Source: Prevotella sp. (GTDB taxonomy: Bacteria; Bacteroidota; Bacteroidia; Bacteroidales; Bacteroidaceae). Taken from it: a stretch of DNA of 37,946 bases. Position numbers and translations under genes: made by a program. Below the pieces are notes generated by a model. It was not told the origin of the DNA. It saw only the letters and a list, made by a program, of their open reading frames with translations, and did no database searches. The DNA lies in contig JAFVGI010000061.1 of NCBI GenBank assembly GCA_017475005.1, forward strand, positions 1-37,946, read 5' to 3'. Below, in pieces: positions 26,997-37,525 of the stretch (positions are counted from its first letter, which is position 1; every line of letters begins with the position of its first letter).

Positions 26997-27036
26997 CATT
27001 GTGTTTTTCATGGTATTAGATTATTAAGGTTTTACA

Positions 27037-27071
27037 GAGTTGATTGTCGTGAGACAATCAATTCTTTTTTT
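27037..27071 (+). terminator. Intrinsic terminator inside the exbB leader (attenuator or sRNA end)
   Basis: A 12-bp stem (27037-27048 with 27053-27064, one G-T pair) is capped by the GNRA loop GTGA and followed by seven T (27065-27071). It ends 11 nt before the exbB ATG. It is either an attenuator of the downstream operon or the 3' end of a small RNA of about 70 nt. The upstream leader (27002-27036) is AT-rich and lies between the DUF3256 gene and this hairpin. Confidence 0.8.
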
Positions 27072-31509: not shown

Positions 31510-32121
31510 TCATTCGTTTTCCTCTATATCTACGTTAATTTCTTCAGCAATGATACGAGTCATAGAACATTTTCTACCAAATCGTAAAAACAATCCTACT
31601 AAAGTACTATGAATAGCATCTTCTGGTGTATCCTCTGTCTCAGGCATAACAAACGCTTCCAATCGACTTCTGTCTTTGTTGCCATCATCAGTATTGCCCT
31701 CAAGTTTAGCTTCTATAGCTAACAAATTGTCAACCCTACTTTTTTGATTCCCTCTTGAATGAAAGAGTATGTCGCAACGAATTCTATCACGTCTAAGATT
31801 AGCATCACTTCTTGGAACCTGAAGCCGATAGTATTCAATGTCAACATAATATCCCTTAAAGTCTTTAAAATTCTCCTGAAGATACATTGCCAATCTACCA
31901 CAAACTGTCATCTCGTTCATTTTGCTTTTCAACAAAAAGGCATCATTTTTGTAAAAGACCTTTATTGCCTCTTTAACTTTAAGGATAATATAGTCAGATA
32001 AAACTTTTGAAGTGCTATCTATTCTTTCCTTATCGTTATCACGAACAGATTCTAAATAATCATTCAAGATTTTCGGATTTCTCTCATTAATTTTTATTTC
32101 ACTGTCTATTTTTTGTTCCAT
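31510..32121 (-). CDS. PD-(D/E)XK nuclease-like protein
   Basis: A 203-aa protein of no named family that I recognise. The arrangement resembles a restriction-endonuclease fold. An N-terminal helix (SKMNEMTVCGRLAMYLQ) carries a Glu. A strand with R-C-D (RRDRIRCDILFHS) is followed by LLAIEAKLEGN, giving D...ExK, and then DRSRLEAFV. This pattern recurs in PD-(D/E)XK proteins of unknown role near defence and mobile genes. Its AT content and isolated position, between higBA and the kinase/SPFH locus, suggest acquired DNA. It has its own promoter. The enzymatic call rests on the motif alone. Confidence 0.65.
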   Translation of the reverse strand: MEQKIDSEIKINERNPKILNDYLESVRDNDKERIDSTSKVLSDYIILKVKEAIKVFYKNDAFLLKSKMNEMTVCGRLAMYLQENFKDFKGYYVDIEYYRLQVPRSDANLRRDRIRCDILFHSRGNQKSRVDNLLAIEAKLEGNTDDGNKDRSRLEAFVMPETEDTPEDAIHSTLVGLFLRFGRKCSMTRIIAEEINVDIEENE

Positions 32122-33942: not shown

Positions 33943-35058
33943 TTAGGGTTGTGGAGGTAATGGTGGAGGAACTGCACCAAATGAACTTGCAAATTCTGGG
34001 AGTGTGGAAATCTTTGCCCAGTTTGGCATTCCATTCTTCCATACAAGTGTATCACTTTGTATCTGTTTCTGAGCTATATAACTCATGATGGTATTCGCAT
34101 CATAAGGACCTTGTTGTTGACCATTGACAACAATATAATAGTTGGCAGCCTGTGGAATTGGAGGTGGTGCAGCAGCCTGGGTATTCATGTGTTGTCCTGC
34201 CAGCCCTGACATCTGACCAGCAAATCCCATTCCTGTGTTCATGCCCATTCCCATGCCAATAAAACTTCCAGCTGTCCCTTCATTGCCAGCAGCAGTTTCC
34301 AACACATCGAAGCTCCTATCCATCTGATAGACATCTCGTCCTGCAATCTTTATCTTTGCCATCAAATCTTTGGCCTCTTTCAACTTGATGAAGCTTGGAT
34401 CATCTTCTGGCACATTGACTGAAACCACATAAAAGTTTTCCAGCCCCACACCATACTTGTTAAAGTCTGGTTGTAATGACTGAACGATGTAATCAGATAA
34501 GTCATTCAGATGAGAATTAATAGTTAAGAACGAAATACTGTCCTTAACCATCTTATCTGATAGGAGATTGGCAAAACGAGAGAGTAAGACTCCTCTGAAA
34601 TAAGAGTCAATCTTACTTATACTAAAGGTTGCCATATTGCCAACCAACGATTCTATCAGCAATCGTGGGTCACTCACTTTAATTCCATACTGGCCAAAAG
34701 CTCTAACGGGCACGATGACCTCATACTTAGGGTCTTCCAACTGAATTGGTGCTGGTGTCCCCCATTTAGTGTCGAGGATTGCCAATGTGTTTACAAACCA
34801 CACCTCTGCTTGAAATGGTGTATCACCGCCAAAAGGCAGATTAATTAGTTTGCCAAGCAACGGAATGTTTGCAGTCGTAATCGTATAAGTTCCGCTCTCA
34901 AAGGAGTCCAGCACCTGACCTCCTTTTACAAAGAAGGCTATTTGTCCAGTATGAACAACCAACTGGGTGCCTAACCTCAGATTATCCGAGGGAAACTTGT
35001 GGACTATTTCATGAGAATTTGATTCCCATTTAACAACATCAATGATAGCCATGCTCAT
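33943..35058 (-). CDS. SPFH-domain protein with C-terminal GYF_2 domain
   Basis: A 371-aa protein. Residues about 20-270 match the YdjI/virion-core-like SPFH group: VKWESNSHEIVHKFPSDNLRLG, LVVHTGQIAFFVKGG, VPVRAFGQYGIKVSDPRLL and YGVGLENFYVVSVNVPE. A Gly/Met-rich linker (about 272-295) precedes a proline stretch (AAAPPPIPQ). A GYF_2-type domain (about 303-356: YYIVVNGQQQGPYDANTIMS, then DTLVWKNGMPNWAKIS) comes last. GYF domains bind proline-rich peptides, and the tail PPPLPPQP could be a ligand for it. SPFH proteins form membrane scaffolds; in B. subtilis the ydjFGHI operon groups one with PspA. The start shares 4 bp with the upstream small gene. Confidence 0.88.
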   Translation of the reverse strand: MSMAIIDVVKWESNSHEIVHKFPSDNLRLGTQLVVHTGQIAFFVKGGQVLDSFESGTYTITTANIPLLGKLINLPFGGDTPFQAEVWFVNTLAILDTKWGTPAPIQLEDPKYEVIVPVRAFGQYGIKVSDPRLLIESLVGNMATFSISKIDSYFRGVLLSRFANLLSDKMVKDSISFLTINSHLNDLSDYIVQSLQPDFNKYGVGLENFYVVSVNVPEDDPSFIKLKEAKDLMAKIKIAGRDVYQMDRSFDVLETAAGNEGTAGSFIGMGMGMNTGMGFAGQMSGLAGQHMNTQAAAPPPIPQAANYYIVVNGQQQGPYDANTIMSYIAQKQIQSDTLVWKNGMPNWAKISTLPEFASSFGAVPPPLPPQP

Positions 35059-35261
35059 TTTTTATTTTCTGTCAATCCACTTAAAGTACTTGCTACCTCT
35101 CTGTACAAATCTGCCATTTCGGGGTAGCTGCCCTTCTTTATATAGATTCCTGCTATTTTTTGTAAGATGGATTCGGCCATAGACAAACTATCTATTTCAT
35201 GCTGTTCAAGCATACCAATCAACTCTTTTTTCTCAGTTTCTGTTAATTCTATGAAATCCAT
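35055..35261 (-). CDS. Small acidic helical protein
   Basis: A 68-aa, all-helical, Glu/Lys-rich protein without a membrane segment (FIELTETEKKELIGMLEQHE, then EMADLYREVASTLSGL). No family is recognised. It is the first ORF after the structured RNA and overlaps the SPFH gene by 4 bp (ATGA), so it is co-translated. If real it may be a regulator or assembly factor for the SPFH protein. Confidence 0.65.
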   Translation of the reverse strand: MDFIELTETEKKELIGMLEQHEIDSLSMAESILQKIAGIYIKKGSYPEMADLYREVASTLSGLTENKK

Positions 35262-35321
35262 AATTTACCATTTGTCTCTGTGCTCAAGAAACATTGTTTA
35301 GTTTTAGGTATAGCCACAACA

Positions 35322-35554
35322 AAAAGAAGTGTGAGCCTGTCAGCTAATCTAACTGATAGGCCTTGGACTGCCCGGAAAAAAGATTAGAAACAGCTCACAC
35401 CCTTGTATGATGTATTGGATACAATCCACTACTATCATAACCAAGGGAAGAACGTCCAAACCTTTCCATTTTTCCAGATGAGTGTCCAAGTTCATCAGTT
35501 TGGAAAAAGCTAAACGCTTCCTATGTTATGTCTGCGACGGTCCATCCGTCACAG
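35322..35554 (-). ncRNA. Candidate structured RNA with pseudoknot, no ORF
   Basis: The 438 bp between the kinase and the 68-aa gene has no coding character but is dense in paired arms. In minus-strand order there are four elements. (a) A 9-bp hairpin, CTGTGACGG / CCGTCGCAG, 35532-35554, one G-T pair. (b) TTTTTCCA+GATGA / TCATC+TGGAAAAA, 35469-35508. (c) CCCTTG..TATGAT / ATCATA..CAAGGG with inner TGGAT/ATCCA, 35400-35447. (d) Outer stem GTGTGAGC / GCTCACAC, 35329-35400, around an 8-bp hairpin whose loop (AGATTAG) is complementary to CTAATCT in the same domain, a 7-bp pseudoknot. A T-rich stretch follows arm (d), and a -7 box lies just before (a). It resembles no RNA family I know. One C-A mismatch in (d) argues slightly for the other strand. 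Folding was done by eye. Confidence 0.55.
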
Positions 35555-35557
35555 GTG

Positions 35558-35565
35558 CAAAGATA
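35558..35565 (-). promoter_or_regulatory. -7 element before the structured RNA
   Basis: TATCTTTG on the minus strand, 4 nt before the first hairpin, so the RNA would begin at or in that hairpin. No good -33 TTTG is found. Two further boxes (TATATTTG at 35612-35619 and TACTTTTG at 35643-35650) lie in the AT-rich stretch behind the kinase terminator and could be alternative starts. Confidence 0.5.
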
Positions 35566-35662
35566 AGCATTTATTTTGAAACGACGTTCATTGTGAGCTG
35601 TATTTTTTTTGCAAATATACATATTTTTTTATTTTTCAAGTGCAAAAGTATGGAAAGAATAT

Positions 35663-35695
35663 AAAAAAAAGAAGAAATGGCGTGACCATTTCTTC
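35663..35695 (-). terminator. Strong terminator after the kinase gene
   Basis: On the minus strand, GAAGAAATGG / CCATTTCTTC (10-bp perfect stem, loop TCACG) is followed by eight T (35663-35670). It is 4 nt from the kinase stop codon and separates kinase transcripts from the RNA/SPFH unit. Confidence 0.9.
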
Positions 35696-35699
35696 CATT

Positions 35700-36947
35700 T
35701 TACTTTTTTTCGCCATTACGGCGCATCTTAGCGAAAACATAACCAACAAGGGACTGGTAACGGGATTGACCATGCTGCATAATGACTTTTTCTGGTATAT
35801 AGGGATATCTTCTTGCCACTTTAGCTGCTATATCAAGAGTCATGATTTGAAACTCTGATGTTTTATCTCTCCAGGCAATACCCGTAGTGGGCGATGGGAA
35901 AACTGAATCGCAAAAAGTGGCGATGGTTGCTTCGTATGCCTGGTCGAGTTGTTTATCAAATTCGGCTTTCATCTGTTCAGCATTGCCGTCATAAACTAGT
36001 ACTGGAGCAGGTGGTTGAGGTTTAGGCTCTATGACAGTTGGTGCTACATGTGGCTGATCAGCGACATTATCTATCGCTCCTACTACTTTTACGATAGTGT
36101 CCTTTTCCTTAGTTTTGGTCACTTGGATGATAGTATCTGTTTCTTTTGGGTTAACAGTGGGAGAATCTACCTGTTTTGAAGAGTAGAAAAAAGCAATACT
36201 TGATGAAATTAAGATGAGAAGAAGGACTATGACTGGAAGTAGGAAATGATTATGAGAAGATATGTTTTTCTTTAACTCGTCTATCGACTGATAGCGATTC
36301 TGTGGATTTTCTGCTATACATCGTGCTATCACCTTATTATATATATGGTGGTTGGGCAGTATTTGTAAAATCTTGCCTATAGCATAAATATCTGTACGCT
36401 CGTCAACATTGCTCCCTGACAGTTGCTCTGGAGCAGCAAAGGCGTTGGTACGTCCCTGTGTATCAATAAAGGTGTCTGTATAACAACATCCAAGGTCTGT
36501 CAACTTAACATCGCTATTGATACGAGTGAGCATAATGTTGTCTGGCTTAAGGTCGAGATGAAGCACCTGATGACTATGCAGATAGCTTACTGCATCTAAC
36601 AGCTGATGCAGGAATTTTTCTGTATTTTGCTTATTGAAATATTCTGGATGCTTAGCAAGTCTATCGGTTAGAGTCTCACCATCTACATACTCCATCAGAA
36701 TGCCATCGTCAGTCAAGGATATATAGCGAACAAGGTTAGGGTGTTCTAAACGATAACCTGTCTCATATTCTTTGTGCTGAGCCTCATGATAACGAATATC
36801 ACCTGAATATTCTGCCTTCAAGCGTTTCAGGAAATGTAACTTCCCGTAGAGTTTGACGCAGAAAGTATCGCAAGTGGCTCCATTGGTATCAAGAAGCACC
36901 ATAGACTCAAAACGAGGCTGTGTATTTGAGAATTGTGAATACTCCAC
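35700..36947 (-). CDS. Hanks-type Ser/Thr protein kinase, membrane-anchored
   Basis: A 415-aa protein from a GTG start at 36947; the first ATG is at codon 16. The kinase domain has the catalytic loop HLDLKPDN (about 129-136, Asp present), DLGCC in place of DFG, the APE motif AAPEQL, and DIYAIGKIL for DxWxxG. A candidate Lys and a Glu (EYETGYRLEHPNLVRY) are seen, but the glycine-rich loop is degenerate or absent. A single helix at about 232-255 anchors it, and about 160 extracytoplasmic residues follow, Pro/Thr-rich and then helical. The gene is 23 bp after the DNA-binding-like gene. It is followed by a strong terminator, so it is co-transcribed with the regulator rather than with the SPFH genes. 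Confidence 0.88.
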   Translation of the reverse strand: MEYSQFSNTQPRFESMVLLDTNGATCDTFCVKLYGKLHFLKRLKAEYSGDIRYHEAQHKEYETGYRLEHPNLVRYISLTDDGILMEYVDGETLTDRLAKHPEYFNKQNTEKFLHQLLDAVSYLHSHQVLHLDLKPDNIMLTRINSDVKLTDLGCCYTDTFIDTQGRTNAFAAPEQLSGSNVDERTDIYAIGKILQILPNHHIYNKVIARCIAENPQNRYQSIDELKKNISSHNHFLLPVIVLLLILISSSIAFFYSSKQVDSPTVNPKETDTIIQVTKTKEKDTIVKVVGAIDNVADQPHVAPTVIEPKPQPPAPVLVYDGNAEQMKAEFDKQLDQAYEATIATFCDSVFPSPTTGIAWRDKTSEFQIMTLDIAAKVARRYPYIPEKVIMQHGQSRYQSLVGYVFAKMRRNGEKK

Positions 36948-36970: not shown

Positions 36971-37525
36971 TTAATATAGGATGTATATTGACGAGAGCCC
37001 TGAAACACGACCTGCTGTAAATGACCCTAATGTTGCTTTATCACGCCACACCTGCATGACGAGTAATGGATGATGGAGCACGAAATGGTGTATTTCTACT
37101 TCATCACCTGCTTGCAATTTACTATTCTCACTCTGCAGGACTTTATAACGATTGTTACCTAAATAGCTAAACAACAATCGGCGATCAGGCAGATAGGTGA
37201 TTTCAACCTTGCTGTCTGGATGCAAATCAACTGAACGGATTTCCTCATCAGAACTATTGAAATCAGAATTTCCCTTGTCATCTACCTCAGACAATTCCTC
37301 CCAATGGGCATAGCCTAAATAACGGGCTATTGCATCAAGAGTGCTGGCATGTGGCAATCTCTCATCCTGGGCAAAGCCAAGCAATCGCTTAAGAGTTGTC
37401 GAACCTATACGAACACCTGTTTTGCTCTGAATATCAAGAGACAATAATTCACACTCAGAAGGTATGTGCAAAGGTACACCAGACTTCTGCTTCAATAGTT
37501 CTATAATATGGAATGGTAGTTTCAT
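36971..37525 (-). CDS. DNA-binding-like protein upstream of the kinase
   Basis: A 184-aa protein from the ATG at 37525; the frame is open further but passes through the promoter. The N-terminal 75 residues have SKTGVRIGSTTLKRLLGFAQ and TLDAIARYLGYAHWEEL. I associate this pattern with a Bacteroidetes-specific HTH-like module found before regulators and kinases. The C-terminal part (about 95-184) is beta-rich, including KVEITYLPDRRLLFSYLG and GDEVEIHHFVL, with no known motif, and may sense a ligand. The ATG lies 7 nt after the -7 box, so the mRNA is probably leaderless. The kinase gene follows. Confidence 0.75.
   Translation of the reverse strand: MKLPFHIIELLKQKSGVPLHIPSECELLSLDIQSKTGVRIGSTTLKRLLGFAQDERLPHASTLDAIARYLGYAHWEELSEVDDKGNSDFNSSDEEIRSVDLHPDSKVEITYLPDRRLLFSYLGNNRYKVLQSENSKLQAGDEVEIHHFVLHHPLLVMQVWRDKATLGSFTAGRVSGLSSIYILY

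What the first reader, a model, noticed from the sequence alone, without database searches (positions are those of the whole stretch)
35322..35565. Pseudoknotted structured RNA before the SPFH operon
About 230 bp without a coding frame contain at least four long stems, a 7-bp pseudoknot (CTAATCT with AGATTAG) and extra complementary words (TTGGAC near 35363 against GTCCAA at 35454 and 35484). A promoter box sits at one end and a T-rich stretch at the other. It matches no RNA family I recognise. It could be a free ncRNA, a riboswitch-like leader controlling the 68-aa/SPFH/zinc-ribbon operon, or an RNA partner of the locus.
Basis: partly seen in the sequence, partly recalled or inferred. Interest (0 to 1): 0.75.

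Follow-up and report, generated by a model that had tools for sequence, protein, structure and literature searches.

The report
Widespread pseudoknotted RNA leader in Bacteroidales
The stretch is one copy of a large RNA structure, not found in the RNA family library, that sits at the start of many unrelated operons in bacteria of the order Bacteroidales, and its shape suggests that it decides whether transcription stops early or continues into the genes.

Summary
On the minus strand, window 35601-35316 encodes a pseudoknotted leader RNA of about 240 nt (about 290 with a 5' arm). Relatives occur in 200 of 301 genomes sampled from the family and 75 of 295 from the order, with up to 35 matches in one genome. 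No Rfam 15 family matches.

It is a 5' leader: an open frame starts 15-80 nt after it in 119 of 165 copies, against 13-24% in controls. Downstream operons differ widely; it is not specific to SPFH genes. A central strand pairs with a 3' strand followed directly by a U-tract, as in a terminator, or, in 89 of 158 copies, can pair with a 5' arm. The two pairings exclude each other. In 43 of 82 copies with the arm a promoter box lies just upstream of it; a second box follows in 77.

Best reading: a new class of transcription-attenuation leader, possibly set by start-site choice. The fold is well supported; function is inferred. No transcript data.

The parts
35612..35619 (-). P1: -7 box TATATTTG (Bacteroidetes type, recalled); predicted start falls near arm A
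   Evidence: Sequence. In 43 of 82 copies with a strong arm A a TAnnTTTG box lies within 32 nt upstream of the arm (32 of them 12-18 nt upstream), against 2 of 81 in a window of the same length further upstream.
35592..35601 (-). Arm A (ACAGCTCACA), partner of the central strand
   Evidence: Helix A 97.2% paired, 27 double-change cells against 5.8 in shuffles; largely specific to its own copy.
35558..35565 (-). P2: -7 box TATCTTTG, start of a transcript without arm A
   Evidence: Present within 60 nt after arm A in 77 of 82 copies, box start 24-27 nt after the arm in 66.
35534..35552 (-). Helix B: GTGACGG/CCGTCGC
   Evidence: Two sub-helices 96.1% and 87.8% paired; 6 of 7 pairs with double changes.
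35502..35521 (-). Helix C, well conserved primary sequence GGAAGCGTTTAGCTTT
   Evidence: 90.7% paired, 1 of 4 pairs with a double change.
35464..35505 (-). Helix D (TTCCA/TGGAA) enclosing hairpin E (GATGA/TCATC)
   Evidence: 85.3% and 73.3% paired, 4 of 5 pairs each with double changes.
35484..35490 (-). Pseudoknot F, loop strand CTTGGAC
   Evidence: Pairs with 35362-35368; in copies not used for the model 99.1% and 94.7% paired in its two parts.
35469..35475 (-). Long-range helix K, 5' strand GGAAAAA (less certain)
   Evidence: Pairs with 35374-35380. A free search found a contiguous pairing of 6 bp or more in 50 of 50 copies tested, but no control was run and in 12 or more of these, the window included, the best match was another word; in fixed columns of A1 K is weak, 193 of 327 cells.
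35400..35447 (-). Hairpin G; its 5' side stands where distant relatives have a local arm
   Evidence: Outer part 72.7% paired, 8 of 10 pairs with double changes; inner part 59.6%; local arm in 42 of 158 copies.
35390..35400 (-). Central switch strand GTGTGAGCTGT, used by either helix A or helix H
   Evidence: Shared columns 284-289 of helices A and H.
35381..35387 (-). Pseudoknot I, 5' strand CTAATCT
   Evidence: Pairs with 35344-35350, 90.8% paired; 79.2% and 73.2% in its two parts in copies not used for the model.
35362..35368 (-). Pseudoknot F, 3' strand GTCCAAG
35336..35360 (-). Hairpin J (CCTATCAG/CTGACAGG) holding pseudoknot strand AGATTAG
   Evidence: 71.5% paired, 6 of 8 pairs with double changes.
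35329..35335 (-). Terminator arm CTCACAC (helix H with 35394-35400)
   Evidence: 98.9% paired, 1 of 7 pairs with double changes.
35316..35328 (-). U-tract directly after helix H
   Evidence: 135 of 152 copies have 6 or more T in the first 9 nt.
35055..35261 (-). First downstream gene, 68 aa, start codon 67 nt after helix H
33943..35058 (-). SPFH (Band_7_1) + GYF_2 protein, next gene
   Evidence: PF13421 6.4e-49, PF14237 2.3e-17.
35700..36947 (-). Upstream Ser/Thr protein kinase
   Evidence: PF00069 3.8e-28; the kinase family is found in 31 of 46 Prevotella records with the RNA.

Best explanation
It is a member of a new family of cis-acting leader RNAs that control transcription of the following operon by attenuation. 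SHOWN by covariation: one RNA on the minus strand with helices B-E, G and J and long-range pairings F and I (K likely); a central strand that can pair either with a 3' strand (helix H) or with a 5' arm (helix A; in distant relatives with a local arm). SHOWN by sequence: a U-tract directly after helix H, and usually a start codon shortly after it. INFERRED: helix H plus the U-tract is an intrinsic terminator, and helix A is its antiterminator. INFERRED, weaker: the choice of start site sets the switch. A transcript from P1 begins at arm A, forms helix A and reads through; a transcript from P2, about 51 bp downstream, lacks arm A, forms helix H and stops after about 235 nt. The pseudoknotted body would stabilise one state, perhaps with a ligand or protein that I cannot name.
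For: Fold: 82.7% of cells paired against 72.1% in shuffles and at most 46.3% when slid, 404 double-change cells against 172, 0 of 500 shuffles. Pseudoknots F and I were not in the covariance model and hold in the newly found copies: 88.5% against 75.3%, 90 double-change cells against 37. Helix A: 97.2% paired, 27 double-change cells against 5.8. Arm and central strand change together across genera and among paralogues of one genome, e.g. Butyricimonas GGCTACCCC/GGGGTAGCT, CAACAACCCACG/CGTGGGTTGTTG and ACGACACCCC/GGGGTGTCGT. U-tract: T 62-94% at each of positions 1-7 after the arm in 152 copies. Alternative partner for the central strand: 5' arm in 89, local arm in 42, both in 16 of these, of 158. 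Leader position: open frame 15-80 nt downstream in 119 of 165, controls 19 of 150 and 117 of 495. P1 and P2 boxes at fixed places.
Against: No transcript, start site or terminator has been measured. 43 of 158 copies show neither alternative arm clearly, and the automatic choice of strands is visibly wrong in a few (e.g. L193). Of 82 copies with arm A, 39 have no visible P1 box, and the upstream gene context does not explain how the arm is then transcribed. The predicted probability of helix H is near zero with and without arm A in a pseudoknot-free model (above 0.5 in 1 of 76 either way), so folding energies do not support the switch. Own-copy pairing is not exclusive: in only 34 of 88 copies does no other central strand score as well, and one Butyricimonas copy (L346) pairs better with another copy's strand, 21.7 against 18.7. 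The fixed arm-to-P2 spacing could mean that the arm acts as DNA. Downstream genes share no theme that names a signal.
Confidence: 0.62

Rival explanations
1. Free-standing small RNA: P2 makes an RNA of about 235 nt that ends at the U-tract and acts in trans; the downstream operon is read only by leakage or from elsewhere.
For: Hairpin B would start the P2 transcript; terminator-like end; several to many copies per genome.
Against: An open frame starts 15-80 nt downstream in 119 of 165 copies, leaving little room for another promoter; arm A mostly fits its own central strand best (a median of 3% of the other strands do as well or better), which speaks for pairing in cis, though not exclusively.
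Confidence: 0.15
2. Ligand-binding riboswitch: the pseudoknotted body is an aptamer for a small molecule and helix H is its expression platform. This is a special case of the best explanation with the trigger specified.
For: Conserved unpaired stretches and a compact pseudoknotted body; the expression-platform layout resembles that of riboswitches (recalled).
Against: First downstream genes fall into many unrelated families: zinc ribbons 11, BspA-type LRR 8, radical SAM 6 of 138, unlike most metabolite riboswitches (recalled).
Confidence: 0.15
3. DNA-level element: the inverted repeats are recombination or mobility sites, and the RNA-like fold is incidental.
For: A block of 311 bp is 98.4% identical between the window and genome G399 and ends near the borders of the element, while the upstream genes are about 69% identical and the downstream operons differ; promoter plus arm occurs without the RNA elsewhere.
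Against: In helices A, B, H and I, G-U pairs exceed A-C mismatches 169 to 19 on one strand (not so in C, E, F, J and K); fold, strand and distance to an open frame are conserved in copies from across the order.
Confidence: 0.05

Closest known systems
Transcription attenuators and riboswitch expression platforms with mutually exclusive antiterminator and terminator (kind recalled; not tested as a family)
   Same: A central strand shared by two exclusive helices, the 3' one followed by a U-tract, in a 5' leader before a start codon.
   Different: A large body with long-range pairings; an antiterminator arm at the extreme 5' end between two promoter boxes; no leader peptide or ligand identified; very diverse downstream genes.
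Bacteroidales-1 (RF01693), Bacteroides-1 (RF01694) and Bacteroid-trp (RF01692) RNA motifs (Weinberg 2010, PMC2864571; passages seen)
   Same: Structured RNAs of the same order or phylum found by comparative genomics.
   Different: The Rfam 15 scan gives no match to any of them on the element in the window or in 22 loci with relatives.
DUF805 / DUF805b RNA (RF03081, RF02914)
   Same: Classed by Rfam as cis-regulatory; DUF805 RNA lies beside a distant copy in L163.
   Different: Models of 68 and 35 nt; a separate element downstream; neither model matches the present RNA.
FopS small RNA family (RF04319; PMC11697453, passages seen)
   Same: A multicopy RNA family of Bacteroides; one copy lies elsewhere in this window.
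   Different: 71-position model; the passages class its members as intergenic, antisense or 3' UTR-derived; the model does not match this RNA.
HMP2_1881 candidate (Fremin and Bhatt 2021, PMC8040213; passages seen)
   Same: Bacteroidetes candidate structured RNA commonly near radical SAM domains, reported as expressed.

Membership tests
Any Rfam 15 family | Score at or above the curated gathering cut-off | tested here: not met
   No hit on the element in the window (best chance matches E 2.5 and 2.8) or on it in 22 loci with relatives.
Transcription attenuator (mechanistic kind) | 5' leader directly upstream of the regulated gene, same strand | tested here: met
   Open frame 15-80 nt downstream in 119 of 165 copies; 19 of 150 and 117 of 495 in controls.
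Transcription attenuator (mechanistic kind) | Two mutually exclusive, conserved helices sharing one strand | tested here: met
   Helix A 97.2% and helix H 98.9% paired in 51 aligned copies, sharing the central strand; in the wider set a 5' or local arm is clear in 115 of 158.
Transcription attenuator (mechanistic kind) | One helix is an intrinsic terminator with a U-tract | tested here: inconclusive
   U-tract directly after helix H in 135 of 152 copies; termination not measured; simple scan negative.
Transcription attenuator (mechanistic kind) | Termination changes with a signal | not testable with these tools
   Needs transcript measurements; the energy-model test was uninformative.
Riboswitch | Direct binding of a small molecule that controls expression | not testable with these tools
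   No binding data; downstream genes give no consistent hint.
Ribosome-mediated (leader-peptide) attenuator | Conserved small open reading frame in the leader | not tested
   No dedicated test was run. Indels in the alignment make a conserved frame unlikely.
FopS sRNA | Match to RF04319 | tested here: not met
   RF04319 matches only window 27001-27071.

The most novel reading that the evidence does not exclude
Arm A acts as DNA as well as RNA. Because it keeps a fixed place at about -46 to -36 of promoter P2 while its letters follow the central strand of the leader, the leader RNA (perhaps with a protein) could base-pair with its own promoter and control P2 in cis: RNA-guided control of transcription initiation by a leader, with the same strand also serving as the antiterminator.
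Probability: 0.06. Interest if true: 0.95.

Novelty: new variant of a known kind. Interest (0 to 1): 0.78.

Why it matters
A leader RNA this large, found in two thirds of the genomes sampled from one family of gut and rumen bacteria and matched 35 times in one genome, would be a major regulatory RNA of Bacteroidales that the RNA family library does not hold. It stands in front of accessory operons of unknown role (SPFH/GYF/zinc-ribbon, tubulin-like, radical SAM, BspA-type repeat proteins), so a signal found for it would at once suggest a condition under which these operons are switched on. If the start site really decides between stopping and reading through, it would be an unusual way to couple two promoters to one attenuator. 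The one close pair compared suggests that the RNA can be exchanged as a unit between operons.

Tried and rejected
Reading the RNA as an SPFH-operon element: rejected, because relatives precede many other operons. Reading it on the plus strand: rejected, given promoter boxes, gene order and the G-U against A-C counts in four helices. Known Rfam family: rejected. GTCCAA at 35454 as the partner of TTGGAC: rejected by covariation in favour of 35484. A protein defence island: for the 10 proteins scanned the PADLOC hits are kinase, AAA and radical SAM matches plus one weak PD-Lambda-3_A match, and were not pursued. Folding-energy test of the switch, comparing a transcript with arm A to one without: uninformative, helix H near zero in nearly all. 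Test whether copies without a P1 box have a closer same-strand upstream gene: no clear difference (18 of 41 against 15 of 42 within 150 nt). Literature: eight searches listed no paper whose title or abstract start describes this RNA. Passages only were seen of PMC8040213, PMC11697453, PMC10994844, PMC7366714, PMC2864571 and PMC7160235; of all other papers only the listing. The library lacks most subscription journals and all bioRxiv preprints, so absence there is weak evidence.

Rows dropped before counts: L117 3605 and two partial copies from A1; ten of the 51 copies of A1 from A2, picked by eye mainly as near-duplicates; from the matches, weak, cut or opposite-strand ones before the 177 places, then duplicates down to 165; copies without a recognisable 3' arm or with too little flank; L199 and L092 from the Pfam scan (138 of 140); L119 (the window again) and L121 from the sources. 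A3 keeps one weak opposite-strand match (L128, 21.9 bits). In one search only 23 of the 40 extra copies were added, by hand.

Full report
WHAT WAS CHECKED. The finding describes a structured, non-coding stretch at window 35322-35565. It folds better than shuffles on both strands, z -4.60 and -4.74. The -7 boxes (TATATTTG at 35612-35619, TATCTTTG at 35558-35565; that this is the Bacteroidetes -7 type is recalled) and the downstream operon lie on the minus strand. The window is a whole contig of a genome that is most likely Prevotella: same-genus handles have contigs of the same length as records titled Prevotella sp., for example G121 with SUYI01000004.1 and G270 with JAFZPF010000120.1. The genome, held at 81% completeness, shows one copy. 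The Rfam scan finds nothing on the element (chance matches only).

RELATIVES. A BLAST search with the core found matches at E 0.01 or better in 57 of 398 genomes of the genus, some of them short. Iterated profile searches of 51 records (50 fetched and the window) gave 54 copies in 46 of them, of which 51 were aligned (A1). A covariance model (R1; its E-values are rough) then found matches at E 0.001 or better in 200 of 301 genomes of the family and 75 of 295 of the order, the window's own included. At E 0.0001 it found 13 of 247 in the class sample, 8 of them of other orders with one match each, and 2 of 247 in the phylum sample, the window's own and one of another order at 36 bits. These searches score only 7 or 8 candidates per genome, so their counts are lower bounds. 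In named genomes scored with 150 candidates, Bacteroides xylanisolvens XB1A has 7, Bacteroides sp. 224 has 6, Butyricimonas sp. Marseille-P3923 has 8 and Odoribacter lunatus has 35 matches; three other loci asked for were not held. R1 matched 79 of the 82 loci from this and the viral scan. The three failures were records labelled Verrucomicrobia, Cyanobacteria and Flammeovirga, and two of the matches, a Pedobacter record and a viral record, are weak at 25 and 21 bits. The viral scan gave 2 contigs, one of them with a good match of 78 bits.

STRUCTURE. On A1 the proposed fold has 82.7% of 3193 cells paired, against 72.1% when 3' letters are shuffled and at most 46.3% when partners are slid; 404 cells have both sides changed, against 172. 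Helix A, tested alone, is 97.2% paired with 27 double changes against 5.8; its number of pairs with double changes, 4, is not unusual (90 of 500 shuffles reach it). The fold was drawn from the window and these copies, which favours it over slid versions. A cleaner test uses pairs that the model did not contain: in 49 matches found with R1 (A3; the window row is the only one also in the model, and one row is a weak opposite-strand match), pseudoknots F and I have 88.5% of cells paired against 75.3%, and 90 double changes against 37. F alone is 99.1% and 94.7% paired in its two parts, with U-A to C-G and G-C to C-G swaps in large numbers; I is 79.2% and 73.2%. Within Odoribacter the F pairing differs between copies of one genome (TCGCCAA/TTGGCGA, ACGACCAA/TTGGTCGT, CGGCCAA/TTGGCCG, TCTGGAC/GTCCAGA; read). 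A further long-range helix K appears in varied sequences (TGAATGTT/AACATTCA, TGTACACAAG/TTTGTGTACA), but in fixed columns it is poorly aligned (193 of 327 cells paired), and in at least 12 of 50 copies my search picked another word. Helices G2, G3, J and E are the weakest (60-73%). G-U pairs exceed A-C mismatches 169 to 19 in helices A, B, H and I, which points to RNA of the minus strand; in C, E, F, J and K A-C is as common or commoner, and over all helices the ratio is 323 to 190.

WHERE IT SITS. Among 165 distinct copies an ATG open frame begins within 320 nt downstream on the same strand in 163, the median distance from the end of the model match is 48 nt, and 119 lie at 15-80 nt. At control positions an open frame within 320 nt is also common (84 of 150 reading away upstream, 382 of 495 at random places), but one at 15-80 nt is not (19 of 150 and 117 of 495). 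The window's 68-aa gene starts 67 nt after helix H. First downstream genes are diverse: of 138 scanned, 11 match zinc ribbons, 8 BspA-type leucine-rich repeats, 6 radical SAM, and the others many other families or none. Operons include SPFH/GYF/zinc-ribbon, tubulin-like with GYF, AAA ATPase, and radical SAM. In the Prevotella set, 31 of 46 records hold a protein-kinase gene and 31 of 46 the 184-aa protein family, usually just upstream, while the SPFH family is in 6 of 46. Between the window and genome G399 a 311-bp block covering arm A to the 3' end is 98.4% identical, while the upstream genes are 69% identical and the downstream operons differ, so at least here the leader appears to have moved as a unit.

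THE SWITCH. The 3' strand of helix H is followed directly by a U-rich tract: T makes up 62-94% at each of the first seven positions, and 135 of 152 copies have at least 6 T in the first 9. The central strand has another possible partner: a 5' arm in 89 copies, a local arm just upstream in 42, both in 16 of these, neither clearly in 43, of 158 (strong means at most 1 of 60 shuffles as good). Arms and central strands change together: 58 distinct helices among 88 copies with a strong arm. For a given 5' region a median of 3% (mean 9%) of the other 30 central strands score as well as its own, and none in 34 of 88; many strands are near-identical, which limits this test. In the small matrix of that call two of three Butyricimonas copies fit their own strand best, and one (L346) is fitted better by another copy's strand. 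A and H share the central strand and exclude each other. This is the layout of an antiterminator and a terminator.

TWO PROMOTERS. In 82 copies with a strong arm A, a P2 box begins within 60 nt after the arm in 77, and in 66 of these 24-27 nt after it. A P1 box lies within 32 nt upstream in 43, most at a distance that would put the start near the arm, against 2 of 81 in a window of the same length further upstream. The inferred spacing of the two starts is 49-54 bp in 76 copies (5th to 95th percentile; it assumes a start at the arm). In the window, a terminator-like hairpin at 35696-35670 separates the kinase gene from P1, so the arm would there be transcribed from P1. 39 of the 82 copies lack a visible P1 box, and in a similar set their upstream genes do not explain how the arm is transcribed.

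WHAT REMAINS UNCERTAIN. Nothing here shows a transcript. A pseudoknot-free energy model gives helix H near-zero probability with or without arm A, so the switch rests on covariation and layout. The fixed arm-to-P2 spacing might reflect a function of the arm as DNA; promoter-plus-arm stretches without the full RNA exist before short genes. The signal is unknown. Whether a published microbiome candidate (HMP2_1881) overlaps this RNA was not checked.

VERDICT. A real, new and widespread structured leader RNA, which I rate as a new variant of a known kind (transcription attenuators). The family and the main features of its fold are near certain; attenuation is the best-supported mechanism at about 0.6; control by the choice of start site is a plausible part of it at about 0.35-0.4.

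Noticed in passing
window 35670-35696 (-): Terminator-like hairpin with a run of T between the kinase gene and the leader's first promoter box.
   Followed up: partly
window 27001-27071 (+): A FopS-family small RNA (RF04319, 63 bits, gathering 56), elsewhere in the same contig.
   Followed up: no
window 36971-37525 (-) and 35700-36947 (-): A 184-aa protein with no Pfam, PADLOC or NCBIfam match at the thresholds used and a Ser/Thr kinase recur before variable operons; each family in 31 of 46 Prevotella records with the RNA.
   Followed up: partly
L040 5410-7250, L041 147-197, L045 7991-8045 and 10859-10929: Promoter P2 with an arm A-like stretch but without the full RNA, in front of short genes, some nucleotidyltransferase-like or toxin-antitoxin-like by eye.
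   Followed up: partly
L042 8000-8099: A truncated copy that keeps the promoter and the 5' hairpins but not the terminator part (36.8 bits).
   Followed up: no
Odoribacter lunatus (L307-L334): 35 matches in 2.6 Mb. Of 27 copies printed, 16 precede paralogous proteins beginning MKKL or MKKF with a signal-like start, by eye; several lie near contig ends.
   Followed up: partly
L163 1396-1464 (-): A DUF805 RNA (RF03081) 36 nt downstream of a copy of this RNA.
   Followed up: no
window 31513-32121 (-): 203-aa protein with a weak PADLOC match to PD-Lambda-3_A (9.1e-07).
   Followed up: no
window 35274-35292 (-) and relatives: In several copies a small hairpin, often with GAGC or GAGCC in its loop, lies between the RNA and the start codon; seen by eye only.
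   Followed up: no
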